64,000 nucleotides of DNA, taken from contig NZ_CP077639.1 in NCBI RefSeq assembly GCF_019056395.1, positions 2,482,001 through 2,546,000 of the forward strand, given 5' to 3'. This document shows positions 54,765 through 59,500 of the stretch, piece by piece (position 1 is the first letter of the stretch; each line of letters begins with the position of its first letter). The DNA comes from Terribacillus sp. DMT04. Lineage in GTDB: Bacteria; Bacillota; Bacilli; Bacillales; Amphibacillaceae. The position numbers and the translations under genes are program-made. The notes under the pieces were generated by a model that was not told the origin of the DNA, ran no database searches, and saw nothing but the letters and a program-made list of their open reading frames with translations.

Positions 54765-55112
54765 TTGTCTTATTTGGCATCTTTAATGACAGGACGTACT
54801 GAAAAATTAGAACAGCTTTCTCGACTCCGTCAAGCTAAATCCACTTTAGAAACTCTTCAAATGGACATGGTTCAACATAGCAGAGATATTACAGAACCTG
54901 AATTACCTCCTAACGCATGGAAAGGAACTACGGCAGATAAGTTTGAACAAAAACGTGATGCAGCTCTCCGCTCTTATAAAGACATCTCACATAACAAAAT
55001 GGATGATGCCGTGCAATTAATCAGCAGTAGAATGGGCGCACTACATAACAGCGTACAATCAACTGAAATACGAATAGAGCGGGAAAAGCAACGTATAAAG
55101 GACGAGAAGTGA
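54765..55112 (+). CDS. DUF5082-type (YwqH-like) helical T7SS partner protein
   Basis: 115 aa, helical hairpin of WXG100-like size, polar, no signal peptide. Such proteins precede LXG toxins and are thought to bind the LXG domain for export by the type VIIb system. The W in PPNAWKGTTADKFEQKR resembles the WxG turn. The start is TTG at 54765 (SYLASL...), eight bases after AGG; a GTG three codons upstream is the alternative. First gene of a seven-gene plus-strand cassette that is AT-richer than its flanks. TATAAT lies about 25 bp upstream. Confidence 0.82.
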   Translation: MSYLASLMTGRTEKLEQLSRLRQAKSTLETLQMDMVQHSRDITEPELPPNAWKGTTADKFEQKRDAALRSYKDISHNKMDDAVQLISSRMGALHNSVQSTEIRIEREKQRIKDEK

Positions 55113-55125
55113 GGGAGAAAACATT

Positions 55126-55410
55126 ATGAATGGAGAAATAAAAATAGCATACGAGGAGGCAAGTAAGTTAGTTAATAAGGTTGAAAAAAACATCGCTAAT
55201 ATTGAAGCTGACCTCCTACGTTCATTTGCTGATAAAAATGAACTAAACACTGTAAGAAAGATAAATGAATTTAATAATGCATTGGCCAAAGTGACAGAAG
55301 CTTATAAGCAGCTACTTATTAAAAATAACGAAAGTGTTCTCCAAACAATTGAAACTTTTCGCGAGATGGACAACTCTCTATCTAATTCATTTAAGGGAGA
55401 AAAGAAATGA
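55126..55410 (+). CDS. DUF5344-type (YwqI-like) helical T7SS partner protein
   Basis: 94 aa helical protein (MNGEIKIAYEEASKLVNKVE...) with the second position in ywqH-ywqI-LXG type loci. Probably forms part of the export complex with the LXG domain. SD gagggag before the ATG; its stop overlaps the toxin start (ATGA), so the two are translationally coupled. Confidence 0.82.
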   Translation: MNGEIKIAYEEASKLVNKVEKNIANIEADLLRSFADKNELNTVRKINEFNNALAKVTEAYKQLLIKNNESVLQTIETFREMDNSLSNSFKGEKK

Positions 55411-56831
55411 AACAATTACATAATCAGTCCCTTCATGCTGATATCAATCAATTGCTAACCAAGTTAGATACAAAATTAGACCAAATGGATCAACTTAAAA
55501 ATGCTATAGTAGATTTATCTCACAGTCAAGATTCTTTCACTGGCGCAACTGGTACTTCAATAAGAAGTTACTATCAAGATATTCATCAAACTTTTATTTC
55601 ATTTTATTGTGAGTCGATAAAAGGTTATAAATCTCTGCTTAAGAATTTGCGAGATACCTCGTTAGATTTAGAAGTTGATAAAACTGGGAGAATAAGGCAA
55701 GATTTCTTAGAAGGAGAATTGACCGATAGCTTGGATAGATCCAAAAAAATGACTATCGATAAAGTAGAGGAAGCTAATAATATATTTAGTTCAATTAATG
55801 ATATTATCCATCTTAGTAATTTAAATGCTGATGCATTTACTCATAAAATAAATGATGCGCAAAAGGTAACAAACGAAACAATAGAGGATTTAATTGAATT
55901 CGATACAAAAAATAATAAAGGATTAGAAACTTTCGGTGACGATATCCAATTGATGAAGCAGTATGTAACCGAAATGGAAAGTATGATTAAGGACGGCAAT
56001 TTGAGTGTTGAAAATTATTCACCAACTCAATTGAATCTATCAATACCGTACCAGGCAGCAAAGCATTCATTGGAAACCAGATCAAATACTGATAAGTTCT
56101 CCAATCCTACTCCTCATGATCTGGTTAAAGAAATTATGGAACTTGATATGACTAATAGTTCTTTATCTATTGGAAAAAAAGGAAACGCTGTATCAGCATA
56201 CAAAATCTCTACTCAACCCAACAAAAAATATGAACGTGAATTCAGTACAGAAGACGGCTGGGAGGACGGAGTTGGTAATGTCAGTTTATTAGCAAGCATG
56301 GATTTAGATGAGAAATATATTAGATTGGACACATCTGGATCAGTGGTTGATACAAAATACAAAGAAGAAGGTATAGATTCTCTTAGAGCAAGGGCTATCT
56401 ATGGTGAAACTAAGTCTTATCTGCCATATGGATTAGACACGTTAACGAGCAATATTTTGTATGGACAACACATAGGAGCAAAAGTCGAAGCTGGGATTGG
56501 CAAAATTGAAGCTACTCATGAGAACTCACCCCTATCTGGCACTGTGAACTTCGGACAGGCAGAAGGTAAAGCTAATTATGAAGATTATACAGTAAGTGCA
56601 GGTTTAAATGCATCAATAGCTAAGATAGAAATTAAATTAGAACCATTTAATTTCTTTGGATTTGAACCATTGGAAGAATGGTTTGGCCTTAAGAAAGATC
56701 CATACGTAGGCTTTGATGTTTTACTTGGCTCTGTGGGTGTCGGTGCTTCAGTAGGACAAGAAACCGGTGCCTATGCATCCTATGGTCTCGGCTATGGAGC
56801 AAAAATCGGCTTTATGCCAGAAGAAGACTAA
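55407..56831 (+). CDS. LXG-domain polymorphic toxin with glycine-rich C-terminus
   Basis: Predicted effector of the type VIIb (Ess/Yuk) secretion system acting on competing bacteria. 474 aa. The LXG domain fills about residues 1-200 (SFTGATGTSIRSYYQDIHQ, TGRIRQDFLEGELTDSL). A middle linker follows, then a C-terminal part (about 345-474) rich in Gly, Ala and alternating polar/hydrophobic residues (VEAGIGKIEATHENSPLSG; VGVGASVGQETGAYASYGL). No HNH, ADP-ribosyltransferase, lipid II phosphatase or nuclease motif is visible. The presence of membrane and lipoprotein genes downstream suggests a membrane or surface target (inference). Confidence 0.85.
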   Translation: MKQLHNQSLHADINQLLTKLDTKLDQMDQLKNAIVDLSHSQDSFTGATGTSIRSYYQDIHQTFISFYCESIKGYKSLLKNLRDTSLDLEVDKTGRIRQDFLEGELTDSLDRSKKMTIDKVEEANNIFSSINDIIHLSNLNADAFTHKINDAQKVTNETIEDLIEFDTKNNKGLETFGDDIQLMKQYVTEMESMIKDGNLSVENYSPTQLNLSIPYQAAKHSLETRSNTDKFSNPTPHDLVKEIMELDMTNSSLSIGKKGNAVSAYKISTQPNKKYEREFSTEDGWEDGVGNVSLLASMDLDEKYIRLDTSGSVVDTKYKEEGIDSLRARAIYGETKSYLPYGLDTLTSNILYGQHIGAKVEAGIGKIEATHENSPLSGTVNFGQAEGKANYEDYTVSAGLNASIAKIEIKLEPFNFFGFEPLEEWFGLKKDPYVGFDVLLGSVGVGASVGQETGAYASYGLGYGAKIGFMPEED

Positions 56832-56852
56832 TAAAAAGGAGCATAATGTTCT

Positions 56853-57089
56853 ATGTTACAAAATAAACAAGATATAAAGAAAATTTTACGTATTTCTTTA
56901 CTATTATATAGTATCCTTATTGGATTAGCCGGATCTGTGAGTATCATAGCTGCTCTTATACTAATTCCAAAAGAAGAGTTACAGTATTTTATTGAACCTT
57001 TTATAGTGTTGGGGTTATTTATATATGGTACCTGTGCTGTGGCATTATTTATAAGAACAAAAATTTTCAAGGAGAAAAAAAATGAGTAA
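56853..57089 (+). CDS. Two-TM membrane protein, candidate immunity protein (module copy 1)
   Basis: 78 aa with two membrane helices (about 12-35 and 45-65) and basic ends. It contains one copy of a module found twice more in the protein encoded at 57834-58334: R[IF]xL at the start, G at module position 17, P after helix 1, and [GS][TS]Cx2A[LW][FW][IY]R at the end of helix 2. The gene directly follows the toxin, the usual place for immunity. SD aaggag. Family not recognised. Confidence 0.75.
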   Translation: MLQNKQDIKKILRISLLLYSILIGLAGSVSIIAALILIPKEELQYFIEPFIVLGLFIYGTCAVALFIRTKIFKEKKNE

Positions 57090-57387
57090 TTCTAATACCA
57101 CATTAATCCCAATTGGAAGTGTAGTTAAACTTAAAAAGGTTGAAAAGCCCGTCATGATTTATGGAAGACATCAAATCCAAACTAGTTCAAAAAGAATATT
57201 CGATTACATAGCAGTCCCTTATCCAGAAGGAAACCTAACTGACGATTTTAATGTCTTTTTCAATAGGGAATCAATAGATAATATATTGTATAGAGGATAC
57301 GATTCGCCAATAGAACTAATACTTAGAGAACAAGTAGAAAAGGATCTAGAAAATAGCAAAAAGAAAGAGAAAACTGATGAAATTTAG
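57082..57387 (+). CDS. DUF4176 protein, cytosolic form
   Basis: 101 aa, no signal peptide. DUF4176 core: LIPIGSVVKLKKVEKPVMI, DYIAVPYPEG, FFNRESID, and RGYDSP. DUF4176 genes are typical of type VIIb/LXG loci, where some are reported as effector chaperones (from memory, not checked). Overlaps both neighbours by 8-11 bp. Close paralogue of the next gene's product. Confidence 0.83.
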   Translation: MSNSNTTLIPIGSVVKLKKVEKPVMIYGRHQIQTSSKRIFDYIAVPYPEGNLTDDFNVFFNRESIDNILYRGYDSPIELILREQVEKDLENSKKKEKTDEI

Positions 57388-57769
57388 AATGACTACAATC
57401 CACCTTATTTTAATTTCTACCCTGCTTCTTACAGGCTGCAGCTTTGAAGTGAGCTCTGGATCAGATAATACAACGGAACCAACAGAAACGACAGAAAATA
57501 TCAATACAGATAAACTTATACCTATAGGATCCGTTGTGAAATTAAAAAAAGCGGAGAAGCCTGTTATGATTCATGGTTACGAACAACAGGAGGTTGGCAC
57601 CGAAGAACTCTACGATTATATCTCTGTTCCATATCCAGAAGGTCATATCAGACCAGATTACAGCATCTTTTTTAATCGGGAGGATATTGAAGAAGTTCTG
57701 CATGTTGGCTACTCCACTCCAGAGGATAAAGAACTTCGAGAAGAAGCTGATAGCCGGTTAAAAGACTAA
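57377..57769 (+). CDS. DUF4176 lipoprotein
   Basis: 130 aa. Lipoprotein signal with lipobox LLTGC (C22), a Thr/Glu-rich spacer, then a full DUF4176 core (LIPIGSVVKLKKAEKPVMI, DYISVPYPEG, FFNREDIE, HVGYSTP). The core is clearly paralogous to that of the preceding gene, but here it would sit outside the membrane. An exported DUF4176 is unexpected for a cytosolic chaperone family; a surface immunity or toxin-capturing role is possible. Confidence 0.83.
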   Translation: MKFRMTTIHLILISTLLLTGCSFEVSSGSDNTTEPTETTENINTDKLIPIGSVVKLKKAEKPVMIHGYEQQEVGTEELYDYISVPYPEGHIRPDYSIFFNREDIEEVLHVGYSTPEDKELREEADSRLKD

Positions 57770-57833
57770 TTCTGTTACTTTATAGGAACAAAAATCTGCA
57801 ATAATTGTATTGTCAATAAAAGAAGGTGCTCAT

Positions 57834-58334
57834 ATGTTTCCGGAAAACTTAGGATTCCATACGGTAATACGTTTTGGTCTTTTTCTTTATATTATATTTG
57901 CTAGTATAGGCGGAACGATACCAGTTGCTACGATACTAATGTACGAACCGCCCAATGTTGGTTTTCTAAAAATGATTGCATTTGTTTCATTATTATTAGT
58001 ACCTCTATACAGTTCATGCCTCATTGCTTGGTGGATTAGAGCAAGATTTTTCAAACGACCAGCGACAACACCAGACATAGATATTCACATTAAAGATAAC
58101 AAATCTGTCATACAGCTGAAATCCTTTGTTAAGAAGGCTCTGCGGATTATCCTTCTTATTCATACCATCGTATTTAGTGTCTTTGGCATCGTCGTATTCC
58201 CCTTGTTTATTTTCTGGGTTATTCCGAATGGTTCTCTAGACACAGAATTAATGCCATTATCAATTGCTGCTTTCCTGCACTTTGGTACTTGTGTTTTGGC
58301 TCTTTGGTATCGATCTATGGTGCCTAAATATTAA
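57834..58334 (+). CDS. Four-TM protein made of two copies of the two-TM module
   Basis: 166 aa. Two halves (about 8-75 and 98-164) each repeat the module of the 78-aa protein; both end in a Cys-x2-A-[LW]-W-x-R pattern (SSCLIAWWIR and GTCVLALWYR). They are joined by a soluble linker of about 25 residues. The ATG at 57834 follows aaggtg; a TTG eight codons upstream is less likely. Probable second immunity protein of the cassette. Convergent by four bases with the next gene. Confidence 0.75.
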   Translation: MFPENLGFHTVIRFGLFLYIIFASIGGTIPVATILMYEPPNVGFLKMIAFVSLLLVPLYSSCLIAWWIRARFFKRPATTPDIDIHIKDNKSVIQLKSFVKKALRIILLIHTIVFSVFGIVVFPLFIFWVIPNGSLDTELMPLSIAAFLHFGTCVLALWYRSMVPKY

Positions 58335-58580: not shown

Positions 58581-59414
58581 TCATTTCATATAGCTTTCAA
58601 CTAGCTCATAGCATCTTTCTTTAGTTATAGTTGCTTTCGTCGCCACTAATTCTAACGTCTCCATCGTACCACCTTCATATTTTAGTGAAGCCTCTTTTGC
58701 TTCTGCGTCGCGTTCTTTGATCCAAGTTCGTTGATTTTCTTTTAACTCATTCATTTCGGTTGCGGACAATTGTTCATGAAGTACACTATATATCTCATTC
58801 AGTTTGTTATCCCATTTTTTATATTTTTCATTTGCTTGATCAATCATTGCTTGTGTTGTTGATTTAGTCTCTGCATTCTTATCTGCTTCTTCCATTGCTT
58901 TCAGTTCTTTGAGGTATTCGTCTTTCTTTGAAGCTTCATTATTTTCTGTAGCTGCGGCAGCCTGCAAATCTTCATAAGTCCCGTTTTGATAAACTTTATA
59001 ATATCCTAGGTTACCAGTTTTCCCAGAAACTCGCAGAGATACATCAACTAGTTGTATGACATAATAAGAACCTTTCTGATCGGTCAATAACTTTCCATCT
59101 GTACCAAAAGATATATCTTCGTCTTTTCCCTCTTCCATTTCTTCCTTCAGAAATTCTACAGCTTCATCTCCGCTAGAGATTTGAGCGTTATCTTCAGCAG
59201 ATGTGGAACTTTTCTTTTCAGACTCGTTTGTACTCGCTTCATCATTTACTGAACTGGTATCTGTTAAATTAGTTGATTTGTCTTGTACAGAAACATTGTT
59301 TGTTTCAGCTTCCCCACTATTTGATGCGGTCTGTTCATCTGCCGAACCACAAGCAGTTAATATAAGCATAGCTACAACAGACATTGATACAAAAATCACT
59401 TTTCTATTTTTCAT
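58581..59414 (-). CDS. Lipoprotein with C-terminal LprI-like (DUF1311) domain
   Basis: 277 aa. Lipobox LTAC, a long Ser/Thr/Asn/Glu-rich spacer (about 25-85), a beta-rich middle domain (about 85-150, SYYVIQLVDVSLRV), a Glu/Lys-rich helix, and a C-terminal LprI-type domain (WDNKLNEIYSVLHEQLS, QRTWIKERD, one conserved Cys near the end). LprI of Mycobacterium inhibits lysozyme; whether this protein does is unknown. The second of two adjacent ATGs is chosen by spacing from AGGAGG. Confidence 0.8.
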   Translation of the reverse strand: MKNRKVIFVSMSVVAMLILTACGSADEQTASNSGEAETNNVSVQDKSTNLTDTSSVNDEASTNESEKKSSTSAEDNAQISSGDEAVEFLKEEMEEGKDEDISFGTDGKLLTDQKGSYYVIQLVDVSLRVSGKTGNLGYYKVYQNGTYEDLQAAAATENNEASKKDEYLKELKAMEEADKNAETKSTTQAMIDQANEKYKKWDNKLNEIYSVLHEQLSATEMNELKENQRTWIKERDAEAKEASLKYEGGTMETLELVATKATITKERCYELVESYMK

Positions 59415-59500
59415 CTTCATTCCCCTCCTTTGAAAATATTACCATAATCACTATGATTTTTCACAAAGGAGCCCGTTAGCTTAACTTAAATTTGTAACCA

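What the first reader, a model, noticed from the sequence alone, without database searches (positions are those of the whole stretch)
54765..58334. LXG toxin cassette with four linked downstream genes from two duplicated families
Seen: two small helical genes, an LXG toxin, then two-TM protein, cytosolic DUF4176, lipoprotein DUF4176, double two-TM protein, all plus strand with overlaps or short gaps. Known: DUF5082/DUF5344/LXG trios belong to type VIIb secretion. Inference: the four downstream genes arose by duplicating a [two-TM + DUF4176] pair and form a layered immunity set in membrane and cell surface. I know of no described LXG system with this architecture.
Basis: partly seen in the sequence, partly recalled or inferred. 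Interest (0 to 1): 0.75.

Follow-up and report, generated by a model that had tools for sequence, protein, structure and literature searches.

The report
LXG toxin cassette with surface chaperone-like immunity
A bacterial toxin gene cluster carries, besides the toxin's usual internal chaperone, a second copy of that chaperone domain anchored on the outside of the cell, which comparisons suggest is worn as armour against the toxin.

Summary
The seven-gene cassette is real and where stated. It lies in a Terribacillus-group genome and is a recurrent LXG toxin module of several Bacillales genera. The cytosolic DUF4176 belongs to the Ltc/Lcp toxin-chaperone family, so is probably not immunity. The lipoprotein DUF4176 has that fold but is exported. 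In 14 related loci whose toxin is broken or gone, the lipoprotein is intact in 11, the two-TM gene in 11, the cytosolic copy in 3; lipoprotein kept with cytosolic lost occurs 8 times, the reverse never. Two of these genomes also lack EssC. Orphan lipoproteins are under purifying selection. That is the pattern of immunity genes (two-TM + lipoprotein) versus a chaperone lost with its toxin, and parallels the published EsxX/ExiAB/ExiCD system with other parts. Exported DUF4176 copies arose more than once. Nothing was tested by experiment, and independent toxin losses are few (2 on well-supported branches, 5 on the best tree).

The parts
54765..55112 (+). YwqH-like/DUF5082 small helical protein (Lap-type targeting partner)
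   Evidence: Pfam PF16888 E 5.4e-12
55126..55410 (+). DUF5344 small helical protein (Lap-type targeting partner)
   Evidence: Pfam PF17279 E 3e-14
55407..56831 (+). LXG toxin, 474 aa; LXG domain residues 3-200, variable linker about 200-280, conserved Gly-rich tip about 281-474 ending in a GxxxGxxxG at 460-468 found at the same place in 10 of 10 aligned toxins
   Evidence: PF04740 E 1.2e-46; 10-sequence alignment and motif positions
56853..57089 (+). two-TM hairpin, predicted N-in/C-in with a short outer loop; proposed membrane immunity
   Evidence: charge pattern; intact in 10 of 10 toxin-intact and 11 of 14 toxin-defective loci (graded by hand)
57082..57387 (+). cytosolic DUF4176, proposed Ltc/Lcp-type toxin chaperone
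   Evidence: PF13780 E 1.2e-24; intact in 10 of 10 toxin-intact and 3 of 14 toxin-defective loci (graded by hand)
57377..57769 (+). lipoprotein DUF4176 (lipobox LTGC, Cys21), proposed surface immunity
   Evidence: PF13780 E 1.4e-24; invariant Cys in 16 of 16 aligned; fold matches 9dcs; intact in 9 of 10 toxin-intact and 11 of 14 toxin-defective loci (graded by hand)
57834..58334 (+). four-TM protein, two fused two-TM units; proposed further immunity member
   Evidence: 92% identical intact copy in the toxin-less Terribacillus-group locus L027; no counterpart in L025 (G007)

Best explanation
A T7SSb-exported LXG toxin with a Gly-zipper-like, probably membrane-damaging tip. The two small helical proteins dock on the LXG domain as the export signal. 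[quoted passage not shown] The two-TM hairpins and the lipoprotein DUF4176 protect the producer and its kin from toxin arriving from outside; the lipoprotein, a paralogue of the chaperone, captures the same or an overlapping part of the toxin at the outer face, and the TM proteins block insertion or assembly in the membrane. Shown here: gene content, export signal, fold of the lipoprotein domain, homology, co-occurrence, and retention of the two-TM and lipoprotein genes without the toxin. Inferred: toxin activity, binding partners, export of the toxin, and protection.
For: Toxin-intact loci (10): cytosolic DUF4176 intact in 10, two-TM in 10, lipoprotein in 9. Toxin broken or absent (14): lipoprotein intact 11, two-TM 11, cytosolic copy 3; lipoprotein-only 8 versus cytosolic-only 0, exact p 0.0078 if loci were independent. 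In G310 only the last 17 codons of the cytosolic gene remain, where it overlaps the lipoprotein start. G285 and G433 keep the lipoprotein although the genomes have no intact toxin tip (none in G285; fragments in G433) and no EssC over the family cut-off. Orphan lipoprotein pairs have Ka/Ks 0.107, 0.199, 0.085, 0.22 and 0.23, like toxin-intact pairs (0.02-0.20). The lipoprotein fold best matches solved LXG-associated DUF4176 proteins 9dcs, 9dct, 9dcr, 9mno. The membrane pair ExiCD protects from extracellular EsxX and occurs as orphans in genomes without esxX or T7SS genes, while ExiAB stays with the toxin (PMC12744356). TilA is a lipoprotein immunity for a T7SS toxin (PMC10730906).
Against: No functional data. 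Toxin losses are not independent: 2 toxin-differing pairs on well-supported branches, 5 on the best tree, too few for significance. Loci were found through DUF4176 searches, and in the order I fetched 20 stretches chosen for long frames or paired matches, so a toxin-less locus that kept only the cytosolic copy, or only TM genes, could be missed outside the genera searched with the lipoprotein profile (36, 18 and 10 genomes). In G001 the toxin-less locus keeps three TM genes but its lipoprotein is broken; G503 and G260 lipoproteins are broken too; G546 has an intact toxin without the lipoprotein, so the lipoprotein is not indispensable. G551 keeps the lipoprotein but has lost the first two-TM gene. 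G432, G190 and G268 have broken toxins but an intact cytosolic DUF4176. Ka/Ks values are pairwise and include time before toxin loss; with G551 Ks is near or past saturation. The toxin model is of low confidence (mean pLDDT 45), so membrane damage rests on composition and motif, and 1558 of 5000 shuffles of the window's tip also contain a GxxxGxxxG.
Confidence: 0.6

Rival explanations
1. The lipoprotein DUF4176 is an export or hand-over factor: a chaperone on the outer face that receives the toxin as it leaves the T7SSb channel.
For: Same family and fold as cytosolic chaperones; beside the toxin in 9 of 10 toxin-intact loci.
Against: Kept in 11 of 14 toxin-defective loci, among them G285 and G433, which have neither an intact tip nor EssC over the cut-off; absent from toxin-intact G546.
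Confidence: 0.12
2. All four downstream genes are immunity, the cytosolic DUF4176 included, for example by masking the tip before secretion as ExiAB does for EsxX.
For: EsxX precedent for a cytosolic immunity pair that co-occurs with the toxin; cytosolic DUF4176 present in 10 of 10 toxin-intact loci (loci found partly through DUF4176, but the tip searches added no genome).
Against: [quoted passage not shown] Chaperone and cytosolic masking are hard to tell apart by genomics.
Confidence: 0.18
3. Orphan two-TM + lipoprotein genes are only relics that have not yet decayed, or were kept for some unrelated envelope function.
For: Few independent toxin losses; G001, G503 and G260 lipoproteins are broken.
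Against: Cytosolic copies in the same loci decayed or vanished (8 versus 0); five orphan lipoprotein pairs have Ka/Ks 0.09-0.23.
Confidence: 0.1

Closest known systems
EsxX with ExiAB and ExiCD, Staphylococcus aureus (PMC12744356)
   Same: LXG toxin with Gly-zipper tip; soluble partner that stays with the toxin; membrane immunity that occurs as orphans in non-producers and in genomes without T7SS genes.
   Different: [quoted passage not shown] the words lipoprotein and DUF4176 do not occur in that paper's main text (term search).
Ltc/Lcp DUF4176 chaperones (PDB 9dcs, 9dct, 9dcr, 9mno; Ltc named in PMC13355648)
   Same: Same Pfam domain; same fold for the lipoprotein model; the cytosolic member is encoded with its toxin.
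   Different: The second member has a conserved lipoprotein signal and persists without toxin, cytosolic copy or, in two genomes, EssC.
TilA, immunity lipoprotein of TslA (PMC10730906)
   Same: Extracellular lipoprotein next to a T7SS toxin that acts outside.
   Different: DUF576 family and a lipase toxin with reversed domain order.
TelE/TipE (PMC10434224) and TspA/TsaI
   Same: Membrane-damaging LXG toxins; TelE has a C-terminal glycine zipper.
   Different: Immunity is DUF5085 (TipE) or a single membrane protein (TsaI, DUF443 per passage in PMC9600955).

Membership tests
LXG polymorphic toxin of T7SSb | N-terminal LXG domain (PF04740) | tested here: met
   E 1.2e-46, residues 3-200
LXG polymorphic toxin of T7SSb | Two small helical Lap-type partners encoded upstream | tested here: met
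   PF16888 and PF17279
LXG polymorphic toxin of T7SSb | T7SSb ATPase EssC in the genome | tested here: met
   G000:C1:1253364-1257227, 1919.7 bits, cut-off 778.4
LXG polymorphic toxin of T7SSb | Secreted and toxic | not testable with these tools
   needs expression
Ltc/Lcp DUF4176 chaperone (cytosolic gene 57082-57387) | DUF4176 domain, no export signal, encoded with an LXG toxin | tested here: met
   domain, no signal, present in 10 of 10 toxin-intact loci
Ltc/Lcp DUF4176 chaperone (cytosolic gene 57082-57387) | Chaperone fold | not tested
   only the lipoprotein's fold was predicted
Ltc/Lcp DUF4176 chaperone (cytosolic gene 57082-57387) | Binds and stabilises the toxin before export | not testable with these tools
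   no complex prediction or binding assay
Ltc/Lcp DUF4176 chaperone (lipoprotein 57377-57769) | DUF4176 fold | tested here: met
   9dcs E 7.5e-06, rmsd 2.0
Ltc/Lcp DUF4176 chaperone (lipoprotein 57377-57769) | Cytosolic location | tested here: not met
   predicted lipoprotein signal with invariant Cys in 16 of 16 aligned
Immunity protein of an LXG toxin (two-TM and lipoprotein genes) | Retained in genomes without the toxin | tested here: met
   each intact in 11 of 14 toxin-defective loci
Immunity protein of an LXG toxin (two-TM and lipoprotein genes) | Protects against the toxin | not testable with these tools
   needs a survival assay
Gly-zipper LXG toxin (TelE, EsxX) | C-terminal GxxxGxxxG | tested here: met
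   same place in 10 of 10 toxins; but 1558 of 5000 shuffles of the window's tip also have such a motif
Gly-zipper LXG toxin (TelE, EsxX) | Membrane depolarisation | not testable with these tools
   needs assay; model confidence too low

The most novel reading that the evidence does not exclude
Bacteria have repeatedly turned the intracellular chaperone of an LXG toxin into a surface-anchored immunity factor: copy the DUF4176 gene, add an export signal, and use the same toxin-binding fold outside as a trap that works with membrane hairpins. The window's lipoprotein is one origin; G015 (N-terminal membrane anchor, sister to its own cytosolic neighbour) is another beside an LXG toxin; L129 and L064 are lipoproteins of separate descent without an LXG gene in the DNA seen.
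Probability: 0.45. Interest if true: 0.75.

Novelty: new variant of a known kind. Interest (0 to 1): 0.6.

Why it matters
It would show that a toxin's chaperone and its immunity can be the same protein fold placed on the two sides of the membrane, a simple route by which new immunity could arise. It gives DUF4176 a second role and makes a testable prediction for every exported DUF4176. It also warns that reading 'DUF4176 = chaperone' in genome annotation may fail for exported copies.

Tried and rejected
Considered and set aside: the cassette as chance gene order (recurs in several genera); the lipoprotein signal as a misread start (invariant Cys); all exported DUF4176 as one lineage (AU p 5.9e-07 against one clade of 24 rows; the 20 main-group lipoproteins plus L128 as one clade not rejected, p 0.52); co-variation as evidence for the binding partner (tip versus cytosolic rho 0.84, versus lipoprotein 0.78, versus two-TM 0.58 over 45, 36 and 45 pairs, but the LXG domain correlates about as well with both DUF4176 copies, 0.83 and 0.74, so it does not discriminate).

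Led nowhere: the toxin structure (mean pLDDT 45) was too poor for a fold search, so none was run; NCBIfam gave nothing above a curated cut-off for the nine proteins; promoter and terminator scans were at chance level; the two papers that define DUF4176 chaperones are not held. The phylum sample gave 11 of 398 genomes with a match to the lipoprotein alignment, the window's own among them; of the ten others I fetched and read five (L224, L225, L226, L228, L229), which have cytosolic forms, and did not read the other five.

Limits of the counts: the 24 loci of the integrity table were graded by hand. They were found through DUF4176 searches; of the matches I fetched 20 stretches. Tip absence: G285, G310, G335, G445, G503 and G551 have none; G433, G392 and G260 have only fragments; G001 and G491 are not among the ten genomes with a match. 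Of the DUF4176 matches, those covering fewer than about 50 profile positions were dropped before the tree of 122. My gene caller is simple and missed some genes (for example the cytosolic DUF4176 of L188, added by coordinates). L128's broken lipoprotein carried the label 'cyt' in that tree because its open part lacks the signal.
Full report
What is there. The window is part of G000, a 3.5-Mb genome of the same genus group as G005; G005's contig 14 (61,088 bases) has the length of NZ_NPBJ01000014.1 of Terribacillus saccharophilus 7517-1, which holds the same match. Seven plus-strand genes at 54765-58334 encode YwqH-like, DUF5344, LXG, two-TM, DUF4176, lipoprotein DUF4176 and four-TM proteins. 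EssC lies elsewhere in the genome (G000:C1:1253364-1257227). The genome has two further LXG genes and one further DUF4176.

Relatives. DUF4176 was found in 10 of 10 genomes of the genus, 52 of 159 of the family and 59 of 397 of an order sample. The cassette with an intact toxin recurs in G005 and G007 (G007 without the four-TM gene) and in genus g72 (G484, G257, G404, G550, G543, G540, and G546 without the lipoprotein). Loci with a broken toxin but all downstream genes are in G190 and in G432 and G268 (genus g89); genus g91 (G433, G491, G392) has orphan loci. The toxin tip matched 10 of 397 order genomes and 7 of 36 g72 genomes; the ten order genomes all have members or remains of the set beside it. 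In g72 a full-length lipoprotein match was in 12 of 36 genomes, one of them with a stop: six with the tip and six without; one tip genome (G546) has no lipoprotein.

The cytosolic and the exported DUF4176. Passages in PMC13355648 and PMC13253547 report that DUF4176 proteins are chaperones (Ltc) that stabilise LXG toxins; the original papers were not held. The lipoprotein model (mean pLDDT 82) best matches solved LXG-associated DUF4176 proteins (9dcs E 7.5e-06; then 9dct, 9dcr, 9mno), and a 32-sequence profile of both forms finds the same four (9dcs E 7.8e-19). So both copies belong to the chaperone family, but one is exported: its lipobox cysteine is invariant in 16 of 16 aligned.

Natural experiment. 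I graded 24 loci by hand (with 28, 45, 50, 58). Toxin intact (10: G000, G005, G007, G484, G550, G257, G404, G543, G540, G546): cytosolic DUF4176 intact 10, first two-TM gene 10, lipoprotein 9. Toxin broken or absent (14: G001, G432, G190, G268, G285, G310, G551, G445, G335, G503, G433, G491, G392, G260): lipoprotein intact 11 (not G001, G503, G260; G392 has a small in-frame insertion), two-TM 11 (not G551, G503, G260), cytosolic 3 (G432, G190, G268; the shortened G392 copy is graded as not intact). Lipoprotein kept while cytosolic lost: 8; reverse: 0 (exact p 0.0078 treating loci as independent). They are not independent: a tree of 22 lipoproteins gives 2 toxin-differing pairs on well-supported branches, 5 on the best tree. 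G285, G310 and G551 share a downstream neighbour but keep different relics, which suggests separate deletions. G285 and G433 also lack EssC over the family cut-off (21 of 27 genomes pass it), so the kept lipoprotein cannot serve toxin export there. Orphan lipoprotein pairs have Ka/Ks 0.107 (L122-L123), 0.199 (L120-L121), 0.085 (L124-L125), 0.22 (L124-L126) and 0.23 (L125-L126); L123-L189 gives 0.056 at near-saturated Ks and L122-L189 cannot be computed. Against: in G001 three TM genes are intact and the lipoprotein is broken; and since loci were found by DUF4176 and only part of the order's matches was fetched, cytosolic-only orphans may have been missed.

Mechanism. The toxin tip ends in a GxxxGxxxG at the same place in 10 of 10, a motif described for TelE and EsxX, though one also appears in 1558 of 5000 shuffles of the window's tip. 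The two-TM proteins carry net positive charge on both ends around a short outer loop (13 of 13 examined). The working model is chaperone inside, immunity in the membrane and on the surface. EsxX is the close functional parallel: soluble ExiAB stays with the toxin; membrane ExiCD protects from outside and occurs as orphans even without T7SS genes (abstract, passages and sections 11 and 13 of PMC12744356). TilA shows that a surface lipoprotein can be immunity to a T7SS toxin (passages of PMC10730906). The parts here are different, so this is a parallel, not membership.

How often. In a tree of 122 DUF4176 domains (67 columns; many forks unresolved) exported forms are not one clade (AU p 5.9e-07). 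The G015 anchored copy pairs with its own cytosolic neighbour (100/87), the L129 lipoprotein with its own (96/88), and the L064 lipoprotein sits among other cytosolic forms (nearest fork 90/82, wider forks well supported). The main lipoprotein group may be one clade (p 0.52). G015's locus again has an LXG toxin and two two-TM proteins, so the layout may have evolved twice; L129 and L064 show no LXG gene in 12.5 kb and 4.8 kb, and their genomes have no EssC over the cut-off.

What is new. A search for DUF4176 in the held library found 10 papers. I saw passages of nine and none of these passages describes an exported DUF4176 gene; one lists a DUF4176 protein among vesicle proteins of Granulicatella adiacens (table rows), which may bear on this; PMC3628994 was seen in the listing only. 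DUF4176 with lipoprotein gave two papers, neither on this in the passages seen (the second was searched for DUF4176 and LXG). Two key papers are missing, so this is not proof of absence. Type VII secretion with Terribacillus gave none, and with chaperone and immunity lipoprotein gave only the TilA paper. I rate it a new variant of a known kind.

Noticed in passing
window 58581-59420, minus strand: A protein with an LprI (lysozyme-inhibitor) domain, PF07007 E 1.7e-20, and a lipoprotein-like start lies just downstream of the cassette.
   Followed up: no
L127 4408-7903, L131 4104-7574, L192 4839-8149, L193 6255-9565: Another LXG class with the order LXG, cytosolic DUF4176, two-TM (a sequence not matched by the window's TM profile), and a 176-186-aa lipoprotein without DUF4176: the two-TM + lipoprotein pairing recurs with other parts.
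   Followed up: partly
L028 7814-12486 (G002, same genus group): LXG gene followed by three tandem [3-4 TM + DUF4176] units, 98-aa DUF4176 each; similar arrays in L072 and L076.
   Followed up: no
L115 (G257): Intact toxin cassette in a one-contig genome with no EssC over the family cut-off: a toxin without its secretion ATPase.
   Followed up: no
L109 7706-8416, L110 8094-8798: DUF4176 proteins of 234-236 aa with a long N-terminal extension, each followed by a 74-aa ORF.
   Followed up: no
L027 9372-11427 (G001): Toxin-less locus with three intact TM genes beside decayed remains of both DUF4176 genes and of a further two-TM gene.
   Followed up: yes
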